A program made the translations under genes and the position numbers. From assembly GCA_021781455.1 (NCBI GenBank), contig JAJXWV010000043.1, positions 1-64,000 on the forward strand: a stretch of 64,000 nucleotides of DNA. The letters are read 5' to 3'. Positions 3,677-52,928 of the stretch are shown piece by piece. Below the pieces are notes generated by a model. The model was not told the DNA's origin. It searched no databases and worked only from the letters and a program-made list of their open reading frames with translations. Origin of the DNA: Acidobacteriota bacterium (GTDB lineage: Bacteria; Acidobacteriota; Thermoanaerobaculia; Gp7-AA8). The first letter of the stretch is position 1, and the number at the start of each line of letters is the position of its first letter.

Positions 3677-3990
3677 CCCCGTCACTCTGAGCCGGTCGGT
3701 GTGGGGCAGGCTTTCCAGCCTGCCCTCCCTGGCGGGCTGGAAAGCCCCCACACGAGTCATTGGGTGGAGCGGCGGAGCGCGGCGAAGAGTCTCAAAATTG
3801 CACGATCGCGGTGAGCCACCGCTGTCACGCGCGATCCGCTCCCATCTCACAATCGTCCCGGTAAGAGATTCTTCGCCGCGCTTCACCGCTCCCGCCCATC
3901 CACCACCCCCGCGGTTGCGCCGGCTCAGAATGACGGACGCGCGGCTCCGCCGGCTCAGAGTGACGGGGCCGCGGTACCGATCGCGTGCGG
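3677..3990. repeat. Cluster of dispersed repeats (GGCAGGCTTTCC and CACTCTGAGCCGG families)
   Basis: This 330-bp gap holds no gene. It contains GTGTGGGGCAGGCTTTCC with its inverted partner, then GAGCGGCGGAGCGCGGCGAAGAGTCT facing AGAGATTCTTCGCCGCGCT, and CACTCTGAGCCGG units in both orientations. The same modules recur at 16877-17030, 18905-19056, 26106-26170, 34750-35036, 42418-42620, 48346-48530 and 51362-51443. Confidence 0.85.
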
Positions 3991-21878: not shown

Positions 21879-21883
21879 GACGA

Positions 21884-21960
21884 GTGCTGAGTACTGAGTG
21901 CTGAGTACTGAGTCGTCGCCTTGGCACACTCAGTACTCAGCACTCAGCACTCAGTACTTC
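21884..21960. repeat. ACTCAGT/ACTCAGC heptads, inverted pair
   Basis: GAGTGCTGAGTACTGAG units face CTCAGTACTCAGCACTC units across CGTCGCCTTGGCAC, forming a long hairpin between two co-directional genes. Confidence 0.9.
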
Positions 21961-26524: not shown

Positions 26525-27340
26525 TCACGCTCTCGTGCCGTCCTCGATCCGACCTAACAGCCGCAACAGCCCGTCGAGGATCGTCAGCGGATGCGGCGGG
26601 CAGCCGGGAATGAACATGTCGACCGGAACGGTGCCGGCGGCGCCGTCGTGCTGCTCGGGATGGCCGGCGTAGATGCCGCCGGAGATCGCGCAGGCACCGA
26701 CGGCGATCACGATCTTCGGATCGGAGATCGCCTCCCAGGTCTTCTTCAGCGCCAGACGCATGTTCTCGGTCACCGGTCCCATGACGACGAGCCCGTCGGC
26801 ATGGCGCGGTGAGGCGACGTACTGGATACCGAACCGACCGATGTCCCAGCCGATGGTGGAGAGGACGTTGACGTCGGCCGCGCAGGCGTTGCAGTCGCCC
26901 GCGCTGACCACGCGCAATTTCAGCGAGCGCCCGAAAAGCCGGCGGAGCTTGTCGTCCAGAGCCGCGGCAAGCTCGAGGTGTGCAGCAGACCCGGCCACGA
27001 GATCGCCGCGCGTTCGCGTCGCCAGTCGATAGTCGTCGCTGAACGCGATCGCTTCCTCGGGGCAGGCGTTCTCGCATTCGGGACAGAAGATGCAGCGGCC
27101 GAGGTCCAGAGAAACGAGTGCTGAGTACTGAGTGCTGAGTACTGAGTCCGTCGGGCGTTGAGAGATGGTGATGGCGTTGGTCGGGCAGGCGTCGGCGCAC
27201 TCGCGACAGCCGTCGGGGCAGCGCGAGGCATCGATGCGCGGCGCTCCACGGAAGTGCGCGGGCATTGCAGGGGGCGCAGCATCGGGATACTTGATCGTCC
27301 GATGGCCCTGCCGTGCGCGTGTGAGGAGTGTCTTCAGCAT
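26525..27340 (-). CDS. Ferredoxin-NuoB-like subunit of Ehr-type complex (HyfH/HyfI-like fusion)
   Basis: This 271-residue protein joins two 4Fe-4S motifs (C41, C45, C48, C52 and C83, C86, C89, C93) to a NuoB/HyfI-like small subunit with cysteines C150, C153, C217 and C247. It would pass electrons to the membrane arm of the complex encoded upstream. Between the two ferredoxin motifs, residues about 65-77 (DSVLSTQYSALVS) are encoded by an ACTCAGT heptad array (27111-27150). ATG 27340 lies next to a further heptad array whose AGGACT could serve as a ribosome site. It is the last gene of the operon. Confidence 0.85.
   Translation of the reverse strand: MLKTLLTRARQGHRTIKYPDAAPPAMPAHFRGAPRIDASRCPDGCRECADACPTNAITISQRPTDSVLSTQYSALVSLDLGRCIFCPECENACPEEAIAFSDDYRLATRTRGDLVAGSAAHLELAAALDDKLRRLFGRSLKLRVVSAGDCNACAADVNVLSTIGWDIGRFGIQYVASPRHADGLVVMGPVTENMRLALKKTWEAISDPKIVIAVGACAISGGIYAGHPEQHDGAAGTVPVDMFIPGCPPHPLTILDGLLRLLGRIEDGTRA
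27111..27150. repeat. ACTCAGT heptad array inside a coding sequence
   Basis: Five ACTCAGT/ACTCAGC heptads lie in frame between the two 4Fe-4S motifs of the ferredoxin-NuoB gene, adding about 12 residues to the loop. Confidence 0.9.
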
Positions 27341-27423
27341 GAAGTCCTGAATCCTGAGTCCTGAGTCCTGAGAACCGAATCGTGAGTGACCCACTCAGGA
27401 CTCAGCACTCAGGACTCAGGACT
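27341..27423. repeat. ACTCAGG heptads, inverted pair
   Basis: TCCTGAGTCCTGAGTCC faces ACTCAGGACTCAGGACT across about 25 bp, between two genes of the same operon. The AGGACT unit is next to the downstream start codon. Confidence 0.9.
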
Positions 27424-28932
27424 TCACAAATCATGTCCACAGTAAGAAAGGTTGAAGCTCTTGTTGCAGAGCGGGAAGTCGGAGATCTCGCCGTCGCGAA
27501 GCGCCAGGGCGAGGCCGAACCAGTTGTGGAACGAAGGATCGGTGATCTTGTAGCGCGACAGCGTGCCGTCGCTGCCCGTGATCGCCACGTGACAGATCTC
27601 GCCACGCCAGCCCTCGGTGAGCGAAGCCACCAGCGTGTCGGCCGCGAGCGGCGGGACCGTGGCGCGCACGGGAGTTGCGGGCAATGCCTGCAGCTGCTCG
27701 CGAACGAAATCCGCGGAGCGCTCCAGCTCCAGCCAGCGCACCGAGGCGCGGGAATTGACGTCGCCGTAGTGCGCGGTCATGACGGGCACGTTTGCAAAGC
27801 GATAAACCCCGGTGGGGAAATCGTGGCGAACATCGATGGCCCGGCCGCACGCACGCGCCGCCACGCCGACCATCCCGATCTCCTCGGCCAGCTCCGGCTC
27901 GATCACGCCGGTGTTCTCGAAGCGCTCCGTGACCGTGGGAGTGCTCCACAGCAGCGCGATCGATTCCACGGCGTCGCGCGTGGCATTGTCGAGGCGCTCG
28001 ATGAGCGTTGCGATTCGATCGTCGGTCAGGTTGAAGAGCACGCCGCCGGGGCGTAGCAGCCCGCGGCCGAAGCGCGAGCCACACAACTCGGCGCTCAGGT
28101 TCAGGTAGTCGCCGCGGATGCGGCCGCAATACGAAGCGGTCGGCAGAAAAGCCACGTCGCCGCTGAGCGCGCCGAGGTCGCCGGTGTGGTTGGCGAGGCG
28201 CTCGAGCTCGAGGGCGATGCCGCGAAGCGCCTGGGCGCGGGCGGGAACGCGGGCGCCGCTGAGGCCCTCGACCGCGTGGCAATACGCCAGCATGTGCCCG
28301 ATGGTGGTGTCGCCGGCGACGGTCTCGAGGTAGTACGGCGTCTTCTTCTGCGGCCCGCCGATGAGCGCCCGCTCCAATCCGCGGTGCTGGTAGCCGAGCG
28401 CGATCTCGAGGTGGAAGACTCGCTCGCCGTGGCATTGAAAGCGGAAGTGTCCCGGCTCGATGACGCCGGCGTGCACCGGGCCGACCGCGACTTCGTGCAC
28501 TTCCTCCCCTTCCACGCGGAAGAAGTCCGTCACGCCGGCGACGGGCGCGCCCTCGAATACGGACGCGCCGAGCCGCAGCGGCTGCTGAAAGCGCACCCGC
28601 TTCATCCAGGGGTGGCCGGTCATGCGGATGCCGTACTGCTCGGCGATCTCGCGCTCGAAAAGGTGAAGCTGCGGGCACTCGGGCGTGAGGGAGAGGAATT
28701 CGTCGCCTGCCAGTCGCGTGCGCGCAATGCCGAGCTGGCCCGCGCCATCGTTGGCCATGACGACCACCAGCTCGACGTGGCCGTCGGCCTCGCGTCCGAA
28801 CAGCGTCGACACGCGCCACTCGTTCCAGACCGCATCGAGGATGGCCGTGCGGAACAGCGGAATCGACAGCAGCGGCACGTCGGCGAGACGTGCCGGCTGG
28901 GCGTTGCGGAGAAGGAGTAGCTCGCCTGCCAT
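27424..28932 (-). CDS. HyfG/NuoCD-like subunit lacking NiFe ligands (Ehr-type)
   Basis: This 502-residue protein has a NuoC-like N-terminus (LFEREIAEQYGIRMTGHPW, about residues 91-109) fused to a large-subunit/NuoD-like domain (GPVHAGVIEPGHFRF, ALGYQHRGLE). The CxxC pairs that hold the NiFe centre in hydrogenases are absent: the N-terminal site reads TVAGDTTIGHML and the C-terminal site DPSFHNW, with a distinct CNKSFNLSYCGHDL end. It therefore cannot be a NiFe hydrogenase and belongs with energy-converting hydrogenase-related subunits. It starts two bases after the HyfF-like stop. Confidence 0.85.
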   Translation of the reverse strand: MAGELLLLRNAQPARLADVPLLSIPLFRTAILDAVWNEWRVSTLFGREADGHVELVVVMANDGAGQLGIARTRLAGDEFLSLTPECPQLHLFEREIAEQYGIRMTGHPWMKRVRFQQPLRLGASVFEGAPVAGVTDFFRVEGEEVHEVAVGPVHAGVIEPGHFRFQCHGERVFHLEIALGYQHRGLERALIGGPQKKTPYYLETVAGDTTIGHMLAYCHAVEGLSGARVPARAQALRGIALELERLANHTGDLGALSGDVAFLPTASYCGRIRGDYLNLSAELCGSRFGRGLLRPGGVLFNLTDDRIATLIERLDNATRDAVESIALLWSTPTVTERFENTGVIEPELAEEIGMVGVAARACGRAIDVRHDFPTGVYRFANVPVMTAHYGDVNSRASVRWLELERSADFVREQLQALPATPVRATVPPLAADTLVASLTEGWRGEICHVAITGSDGTLSRYKITDPSFHNWFGLALALRDGEISDFPLCNKSFNLSYCGHDL

Positions 28933-28934
28933 CG

Positions 28935-30362
28935 TCAGCCTCCCAGCAGCCGCACCGCTTCGTGCAGCAATCTGGCGAGCGGCGCCGGGATCCACACTCC
29001 CATCAGCACCACCACCGCGAGACTGGCCACAATCGGCAGCGTCTTCAGCAGCGATTCCCGGTAGTGGATCCCCTCGGCGTCCTCGGGCGGCGTCCCCTGA
29101 ACCACCGCCAGAACCGTGTGGCCCATGCCGACGAAGACGATGAACAGCAGGGTCAGGTACGCAGCGGCAATCCCGTACCGATGCGCATTCACCGCGCCGA
29201 TGAGGATCAACAGCTCGCTGATGAACGGACCGAAAGGGGGCGAGCCGGTGATGGCGAAGAAGCCGGCCAGGAAGAGCCCGCCGGAGACCGGAAGGCGTCG
29301 CATCGCGCCGGTGACGTCCTCGAGGCGCTTGCTCTTGAATGCCCGGTGGATGTTTCCGGCGGCGAGGAAGAGCGCGGCCTTGGTCAGGGCGTTGTTGATG
29401 ATGTGCAGCAGCGCGCCGTATGTGGCCAGGCCGCCGATACCGATGCCGAGCGCGAGGATGCCCATGTGCTCGACGCTCGAGTACGCCAGGAGCCGCTTGA
29501 AATCGCGCTGTCGGACCATGAGCGCCGCCGCTGTTCCCATCGACACGAGGCCGAAGGCGACGAGCAGCTCCCGTGCGAAGTCTCCCTGTCCCGCGGCCAC
29601 GACGATCATGTAGATCCGCATCAGGGCAAAGAATGCGCAGCTGGTCAGGCCGCCGGCGAGCAGCGCGCCGACCACGCCGGGCGCTTCGCCATACGCGTCC
29701 GGCTTCCAGGTGTGCATCGGCGCCAGTCCCATCTTCGTACCGTAGCCGACGAAGAGAAACACGAACGCCGCCCGCACCCACGGCTGCGACAGATGTGAAG
29801 CTCGGCGGACGAGATCCGGAAAGACGAGCGTCGGGTCGCCGAGCCCGATCAGCGCCGCGTAAGCCATGAAGAGCGTGCCCAGCAGCGCCAGCGCGATGCC
29901 AACCGAGCCGATCATGAGGTACTTCCAGGTCGCTTCCAGCGAACGCCGGTTCTGGTTGAAGTACAGCAGCAGAGCCGTGGTCAGCGTGGTCCCTTCCATG
30001 GCCACCCACATCACCGTCAGGTGCTGCGCCAGGATCACGGTCGTGGTCGTGGTGAGGAAGATGAGCAGTGACGTGCAGAAGATCCGGTTCGGTCGTTCGG
30101 CCCGGACGCGCAGGTAACCGATGCTGTAGACGGCGCAGACCAGAAAGAGCGATGAGACGACCATCAGCACCACGCGGCCGAACGCGTCGAGGCCCAGCCA
30201 GTCTGCAAGCGTGCCGCTCGGCGACGTGGCCGCAGCAGTGAAGGTGATGGCCGTATGAATGGCTGCGGCGACCGCCACGAACCACGGCCGGACGGAGTCC
30301 TTCGGAACGAGGAACGTCACCAGTGCACCCACGAGCGGCACGACGACGAGGGCGAGGATCAT
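28935..30362 (-). CDS. HyfF-like antiporter-type membrane subunit
   Basis: This 475-residue protein has about 13-14 membrane helices and the proton-translocation module of NuoL/M/N and Mrp antiporters (TVMWVAMEGTTLTTALLLYF, KMGLAPMHTWKPDAYGEAP, RLLAYSSVEHMGILALG, NALTKAALFLAAGNIH). Lysines and glutamates in these helices form the ion path. ATG 30362 overlaps the preceding stop (ATGA), indicating coupled translation. Confidence 0.9.
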   Translation of the reverse strand: MILALVVVPLVGALVTFLVPKDSVRPWFVAVAAAIHTAITFTAAATSPSGTLADWLGLDAFGRVVLMVVSSLFLVCAVYSIGYLRVRAERPNRIFCTSLLIFLTTTTTVILAQHLTVMWVAMEGTTLTTALLLYFNQNRRSLEATWKYLMIGSVGIALALLGTLFMAYAALIGLGDPTLVFPDLVRRASHLSQPWVRAAFVFLFVGYGTKMGLAPMHTWKPDAYGEAPGVVGALLAGGLTSCAFFALMRIYMIVVAAGQGDFARELLVAFGLVSMGTAAALMVRQRDFKRLLAYSSVEHMGILALGIGIGGLATYGALLHIINNALTKAALFLAAGNIHRAFKSKRLEDVTGAMRRLPVSGGLFLAGFFAITGSPPFGPFISELLILIGAVNAHRYGIAAAYLTLLFIVFVGMGHTVLAVVQGTPPEDAEGIHYRESLLKTLPIVASLAVVVLMGVWIPAPLARLLHEAVRLLGG

Positions 30363-34749: not shown

Positions 34750-35036
34750 CCGTCACTCTGAGAGGCTATGCAGAAATCAAAAACGGTGCGAACGCGCCCT
34801 TGTCATCCCGAGCGTGAGCGAGGGATGACAAGCAATCGTGGTGAGGAGCCTTCTCACCGGCGACCGTGATCAAGGGCAAGACTCCACAATCGTGCAATTT
34901 TGAGACTCTTCGCCGCGCTCCGCCGCTTCCACCCAACCCACCTCCCCGCGGCTCCGCCGGCTCAGAGTAACGGGGGCTCTGCTCCGTTGGCTCACGGGCC
35001 CGCGGCTCCGCCGGCTCGGAGTGACGGGGGCTCTCC
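34750..35036. repeat. Dispersed repeats upstream of the Ehr-like operon
   Basis: The 520-bp gap 34528-35049 has no gene. Its left part shows nothing recognisable. The right part holds CACTCTGAG, GTCATCCCGAGCGTGAGCGAGGGAT, AGACTCTTCGCCGCGCTCCGCC and several CCGCGGCTCCGCCGGCTC units. Confidence 0.8.
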
Positions 35037-52756: not shown

Positions 52757-52928
52757 ACGGAGTGCTGAGTACTGAGTGCTGAGTACTGAGTACTGAGTGA
52801 TGTCGCGCCCACGGACAGAAAAGGTCACTTCTCGAAGCCCTCCCTCCCAGATCTCTCGCTCACGCTCGTGATGACAAATCTCGTGCGGACGCACGACTCA
52901 GTACTCAGCACTCAGTACTCAGCACTCG
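52757..52928. repeat. ACTCAGT/ACTCAGC heptads, widely spaced inverted pair
   Basis: Heptads at 52759-52800 face those at 52897-52928 across about 95 bp of unassigned sequence that includes CGCTCACGCTCGTGATGAC. Confidence 0.85.

What the first reader, a model, noticed from the sequence alone, without database searches (positions are those of the whole stretch)
27105..27155. Heptad array inserted in frame between two 4Fe-4S motifs
The ferredoxin part of the HyfI-like subunit carries DSVLSTQYSALVS between its two cysteine motifs, encoded by five ACTCAGT/ACTCAGC heptads. The frame is kept and both cysteine sets are intact, so the repeat has invaded a functional gene and is tolerated as a surface loop.
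Basis: seen in the sequence. Interest (0 to 1): 0.7.

Follow-up and report, generated by a model that had tools for sequence, protein, structure and literature searches.

The report
Repeat arm inserted in ferredoxin loop
A 31-letter repeat that this one bacterium has scattered about 200 times through its genome has also landed, in frame, inside a gene for an iron-sulfur protein, adding about 12 amino acids to a loop without breaking the gene; it matters as a clean case of a small dispersed repeat becoming part of a protein.

Summary
The gene (26525-27340, minus strand; fused two-[4Fe-4S] ferredoxin plus 20-kDa hydrogenase/complex-I-type subunit) carries a 31-mer, ACTCAGTACTCAGCACTCAGTACTCAGCACT, at 27117-27147. 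All 16 orthologues in the class-level alignment lack it. The gap between the cysteine sets is 30 residues here, 16-21 in nearly all of about 90 orthologues from several phyla. Net gain: 12 aa, 36 nt.

The 31-mer is not a local slippage product. It has 216 exact hits in this genome and none in 20 relatives, same genus included. Related arrays have fixed ends, mostly four units, and sit as inverted pairs in one polarity (53 of 58) with unrelated spacers. The gene holds one arm of such an element. A full pair would put TGA in every frame; the sense arm alone is open in all three frames.

Two further cases suggest a general pattern: a Geobacteraceae orthologue has heptad arrays in the same loop, and RecJ in four related genomes carries hairpin-forming inserts, with different words, at one site.

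Best filing: new variant of a known kind (in-frame small palindromic repeats such as RPE/REP; paired heptad arrays as in Xanthomonas). The dispersal mechanism is unresolved. Protein function and expression are inferred, not shown.

The parts
26525..27340 (-). gene: fused 2x[4Fe-4S] ferredoxin + Oxidored_q6 (HyfI/MbhJ/NuoB-like) subunit, stop included
   Evidence: Pfam PF01058 7.8e-27, Fer4 models; start ATG by orthologues; solved relatives MbhJ, FHL subunits 6 and 7
27117..27147 (-). exact 31-mer ACTCAGTACTCAGCACTCAGTACTCAGCACT, single arm, in frame
27116..27160 (-). expanded inter-cluster loop (residues QRPTDSVLSTQYSAL, P0001 79-93); net +36 nt / +12 aa relative to orthologues
27185..27220 (-). 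first [4Fe-4S] cysteine set C-x3-C-x2-C-x3-CP
   Evidence: invariant
27062..27094 (-). second [4Fe-4S] cysteine set C-x2-C-x2-C-x3-CP
   Evidence: invariant
26561..26893 (-). Oxidored_q6 domain downstream of the insert, same frame
   Evidence: residues 168-278
27343..27372 (-). G-type arm of an inverted pair in the 5' intergenic gap, ending 2 nt before the ATG
27393..27423 (+). opposite G-type arm of the same intergenic pair, directly after the stop codon of the upstream gene; the pair folds at -64.8 kcal/mol
21883..21958 (.). inverted pair (minus arm, 14-bp spacer, plus arm); the minus arm is the same 31-mer, for comparison
52761..52926 (.). another inverted pair with the same 31-mer in both arms

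Best explanation
One arm (31 nt plus about 5 nt) of a species-specific dispersed repeat element was inserted into the loop between the two iron-sulfur cluster motifs of this subunit and was kept because it does no visible harm. Shown: the repeat is a dispersed unit with fixed ends; relatives have the empty site; the insertion is in frame; all cluster ligands and the downstream domain are intact. Also shown: the sense strand of the arm is open in all three frames and the other strand has TGA in all three, so only a lone arm in sense orientation can be kept inside a gene. Inferred: the elements spread as inverted pairs (REPIN-like), insertions that broke the frame were lost by selection, and the extra residues form a flexible turn that does not alter electron transfer. 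Not known: which enzyme spreads the element.
For: 16 class-level orthologues lack the insert. Loop lengths in 90 parsed sequences: 16-21 in 87, 24 in one, 30 here, 33 in one Geobacteraceae copy. Exact 31-mer: 216 hits in this genome, 0 in 20 relatives. Of 150 arrays, 78 have exactly four units and 93-97% end in ACT. Adjacent arrays: 53 of 58 in minus-plus order, p = 1e-26 against 1/4. The two arms of a pair share type in 53 of 57 cases against 50 of 91 for unrelated neighbours. Sense open, antisense with stops in all frames. Model: residues 65-77 lie between strands 57-60 and 75-79, block pLDDT 59. Same behaviour elsewhere: RecJ and apparent linkers of a 14,052-aa PKS-like frame.
Against: Net gain is 36 nt, not 31, so the ancestral loop is not restored simply by removing the 31-mer; the nearest relative is only 80% identical, so the other 5 nt may be drift or filler. 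The gene may not be expressed. The element is REPIN-like by geometry only: arrays are not enriched beside Y1 transposase genes.
Confidence: 0.85

Rival explanations
1. Contingency locus: the heptad array is a simple sequence repeat whose unit gains and losses (7 nt each) switch the subunit in and out of frame (phase variation).
For: A 7-nt unit shifts the frame at every single-unit change; phase variation by repeats of this kind is reported for an adhesin gene in Haemophilus influenzae (PMC8262952, found, abstract only).
Against: Four units is the commonest length across the genome (78 of 150), which points to a copied fixed unit rather than a length-unstable tract. The T/C alternation makes it only two copies of a 14-mer. 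The gene is a respiratory-type subunit, not a surface structure.
Confidence: 0.05
2. Local origin: the loop gained the repeat by replication slippage in place, unrelated to the dispersed arrays.
For: The loop naturally varies in length (16-21 residues).
Against: The sequence is identical, with the same two ends, to the commonest of the dispersed arms in this genome (36 exact isolated four-unit copies in the 1.55 Mb sample; 216 hits in all).
Confidence: 0.03
3. The insert has been taken into service: the peptide changes docking or cluster tuning in the complex and is kept by positive selection.
For: An independent heptad-derived expansion in the same loop of a Geobacteraceae orthologue (L127, 33 residues).
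Against: Only 2 of about 90 orthologues have it; the words differ; the sequence is identical to non-coding copies, so there has been no coding refinement.
Confidence: 0.05

Closest known systems
Rickettsia palindromic elements (RPE)
   Same: Small repeats found both between genes and in frame inside conserved protein genes; tolerated inserts (PMC2229807; PMC3733652).
   Different: RPEs are 105-146 bp palindromes; here a 31-nt single arm of tandem heptads, with no palindrome inside the gene.
REP / REPIN elements and RAYT transposases
   Same: Inverted doublets (93% in SBW25, PMC3116915; 91% here), singlets also present, hairpins, some inside repair genes such as recB (PMC3733652; compare RecJ here).
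   Different: Arms are tandem 7- or 8-mers with unrelated spacers of 7-97 bp and independent unit counts; no enrichment of arrays at Y1_Tnp genes.
GGGAATC heptad repeats of Xanthomonas (and GGGGA(C/T)T of Nostoc)
   Same: Heptanucleotide arrays, preference for four units, non-coding bias, 70-75 close inverted pairs per Xanthomonas genome (PMC4692102).
   Different: The word here has no G-tracts for quadruplexes; many words coexist in this genome; in-frame carriage in conserved proteins is shown by orthologue alignment.
TAACTGA direct repeats of marine Beggiatoaceae
   Same: Abundant intergenic heptads, often just upstream of start codons (PMC4679880).
   Different: TAACTGA carries a stop in forward orientation; nearly all are direct arrays, one inverted case.

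Membership tests
REPIN (REP doublets) | two inverted copies in one polarity | tested here: met
   53 of 58 adjacent pairs minus-plus; all other word families also one polarity
REPIN (REP doublets) | pair can fold into a hairpin | tested here: met
   mean MFE -55.4 against -20.7 shuffled for 50 pairs
REPIN (REP doublets) | copies next to a RAYT (Y1_Tnp) gene | tested here: not met
   14 Y1_Tnp places in the genome, most stretches of about 3.6 kb have no array; 9 arrays in about 48 kb in all, background 23 per 100 kb
REPIN (REP doublets) | arm is itself a palindrome of 20-40 nt tagged GTAG or CGTC | tested here: not met
   arm is (ACTCAGN)n ACT with no such tag
Rickettsia palindromic element | in-frame insertion in conserved genes, absent from orthologues | tested here: met
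Rickettsia palindromic element | 105-146 bp palindrome | tested here: not met
   31-nt arm with no inverted partner inside the gene
Xanthomonas-type heptad repeat | 7-nt unit, about four units, non-coding bias, frequent inverted pairs | tested here: met
Xanthomonas-type heptad repeat | G-tracts that can form G-quadruplexes | tested here: not met
   ACTCAGN has no run of three G
phase-variable simple sequence repeat | unit number varies between cells | not testable with these tools
   no population reads available
telomerase-like reverse transcriptase product (DRT10) | a matching reverse transcriptase in array-bearing genomes | tested here: not met
   RVT_1 not found in array-bearing G002, G003, G004, G007; the only one in the window's genome looks like an RT fused to a Cas1-like part, judged by eye from its sequence

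The most novel reading that the evidence does not exclude
An unknown writing machine adds species-specific 7- or 8-nt words in one strand polarity at breaks or nicks, giving paired arms of the same word around unrelated filler; words turn over between species while sites persist (RecJ, the gap before this gene), and proteins repeatedly absorb the product in frame. Fixed polarity, shared word within a pair, independent unit counts and unrelated spacers fit such end-addition at least as well as copying of one ready-made element, but no candidate enzyme was found.
Probability: 0.12. Interest if true: 0.85.

Novelty: new variant of a known kind. Interest (0 to 1): 0.5.

Why it matters
It gives a clean, recent example of a dispersed non-coding repeat becoming protein sequence: the coding copy is still identical to the non-coding ones, the empty site is known, and the strand rule (one strand open in all frames, the other closed in all) predicts which insertions can survive. 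The genome around it shows that short tandem-repeat arrays here behave like mobile paired elements with fixed ends rather than slipping microsatellites, which makes the old question of why heptamers dominate bacterial repeats testable.

Tried and rejected
Telomerase-like RT (DRT10-like) as the source: unsupported, no RVT_1 match in several array-bearing genomes and only an RT-Cas1-like gene here. The idea that arrays beginning and ending with the same 2-4 nt is itself meaningful was dropped, because any periodic stretch of length 7n+k does so by arithmetic; only the fixed phase and fixed ends carry information. RAYT link by gene proximity: no enrichment; array density does tend to be low in genomes without Y1_Tnp, but the samples are small and follow the tree. 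Sense-only orientation of in-gene arrays as independent evidence was dropped, because filtering for open frames forces it. The codon-score scan for in-gene arrays gives candidates, many of them upstream extensions of frames, so only orthologue-checked cases (target, RecJ) are claimed as inserts; the PKS linkers are likely.

Full report
What is there. The gene at 26525-27340 (minus strand) encodes a 271-residue protein: two [4Fe-4S] motifs followed by an Oxidored_q6 domain. Its best solved relatives are MbhJ and formate hydrogenlyase subunit 7 for the second half and, for the first half, proteins such as formate hydrogenlyase subunit 6. The neighbours are a fused 30/49-kDa-type subunit and an antiporter-type membrane subunit. 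Between the two cysteine sets lies an array of four heptads plus ACT, 27117-27147. In the gene's frame it reads (D)SVLSTQYSAL. All eight cysteines and the downstream domain stay in frame.

Is it an insertion? Sixteen orthologues from the same class, including one of the same genus at 80% identity, share a loop that is 12 residues or more shorter, and none has the heptads. In a wider set (Acidobacteriota, Planctomycetota, Geobacteraceae, Verrucomicrobiota and others), 90 sequences could be parsed: 87 have 16-21 residues between the cysteine sets, one has 24, the window's has 30, and one has 33. The 33-residue one, L127 from a Geobacteraceae MAG, is itself made of two short heptad arrays (CGGGACT x2.4 and GGACTAG x2.4), so the same loop was expanded by heptads twice. 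Support for L127 is weaker: its genome has only three other places with a long GGGACTN array.

Is it local or dispersed? Dispersed. The exact 31-mer of the gene has 98 hits on one strand and 118 on the other in this 4.88-Mb genome and not one in 20 relatives, the same genus included (overlapping hits in longer arrays are counted). The looser pattern (ACTCAGN)3 is found in many members of the family and almost nowhere else in the class.

Anatomy of the element, from 1.55 Mb of the genome. Tandem repeats of 7 and 8 nt stand far above all other periods, with 14, 16 and so on as multiples. ACTCAGN arrays start exactly at ACTCAG and end in ACT in 93-97%. Four units is the mode (78 of 150). They are mostly intergenic. 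Adjacent arrays within 600 bp are in minus-plus order in 53 of 58 cases, with a median gap of 26 bp. Every other word family with several pairs (AAAATTG, AATTCTC, ACCGCAG, ACCCGCT, AAGAGCC, AACCGCGC) also forms inverted pairs in a single polarity. The two arms of a pair are of the same 7th-base type in 53 of 57 cases, against 50 of 91 for neighbouring separate elements, yet their unit counts often differ and the spacers are unrelated. Pairs fold strongly (mean -55 against -21 kcal/mol).

Why a single arm in the gene. The sense strand of the arm is open in all three frames; the other strand has TGA in all three. An inverted ACTCAG pair would therefore end the protein. The gene carries one arm in the open orientation. 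This follows from the words and needs no special function. The net gain is 36 nt, about 5 nt more than the 31-mer, which keeps the frame; whether these are filler or later drift cannot be told.

Same process in another gene. RecJ of this genome carries an in-frame inverted octad pair in the loop before VLVLAGENWHRGVVGL. Three relatives (G001, G007, G008) have array-like, hairpin-forming inserts of other words at the same place; six others have a short loop with none. The hairpin signal is strong in G000 and G008 (-62 and -71 against about -40 shuffled) and modest in G001 and G007. A 14,052-residue PKS-like open frame has several arrays in apparent linkers. The short gap before the target gene is filled by an inverted heptad pair here, by CTTCTGC-type heptads in G014 and by CTTCATC-type heptads in G005, and is short and array-free in the others looked at. 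So sites recur while words change.

Structure. An AlphaFold model from 26 sequences (mean pLDDT 82.6) places the added residues (65-77 of the model) between strands 57-60 and 75-79, in the block of lowest confidence inside the fold (pLDDT 59). That fits a flexible turn. It says nothing about contacts inside the complex.

Mechanism of spread. The one-polarity doublets, hairpins and lone arms resemble REPINs (PMC3116915), but the arms are not tagged palindromes and arrays are not enriched at the 14 Y1_Tnp places. A telomerase-like writer, as known for DRT10 (PMC12632851), would fit the polarity and shared words, but several array-bearing relatives lack any RVT_1 match and the only one here looks like an RT-Cas1 fusion. 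The mechanism stays open.

Known or new. In-frame small palindromic repeats are known (RPE, REP; PMC2229807, PMC3733652), and four-unit heptad arrays in close inverted pairs were described in Xanthomonas (PMC4692102). This case joins the two: a heptad-array arm carried in frame inside a conserved iron-sulfur subunit. Hence a new variant of a known kind, of moderate interest.

Limits. No expression or protein data. About a third of the genome was read base by base.

Noticed in passing
window 27338-27390: The intergenic heptad arm ends 2 nt before the ATG and supplies an AGGA a few bases upstream, so the repeat may serve as the ribosome-binding site of this gene.
   Followed up: no
L300 (RecJ, genome place C10:38618-40387), L301, L302, L305: In-frame hairpin-forming array inserts of different words at one site of RecJ in four related genomes; empty in six others.
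   Followed up: partly
G000 C40:11207-53362, minus strand (L183, L206, L207): A single open frame of 14,052 codons, PKS-like, with several repeat arrays in apparent linkers.
   Followed up: partly
window 27427-28941, minus strand: The 49-kDa/hydrogenase-large-type subunit has no CxxC motif at all, so the usual Ni-Fe ligand motifs seem absent; the complex may be a hydrogenase-related complex without the Ni-Fe site.
   Followed up: partly
L127 3174-3227: Geobacteraceae orthologue with two heptad arrays (CGGGACT and GGACTAG) in the same inter-cluster loop.
   Followed up: yes
L274 55-3402, minus strand: RT apparently fused to a Cas1-like C-terminal part (1115 aa), the only RVT_1 gene found in this genome.
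   Followed up: no
window 3908-3974, 34945-35028: A different repeat, CCCGCGGCTCCGCCGGCTC..., of about 24-30 nt occurs at two places.
   Followed up: no
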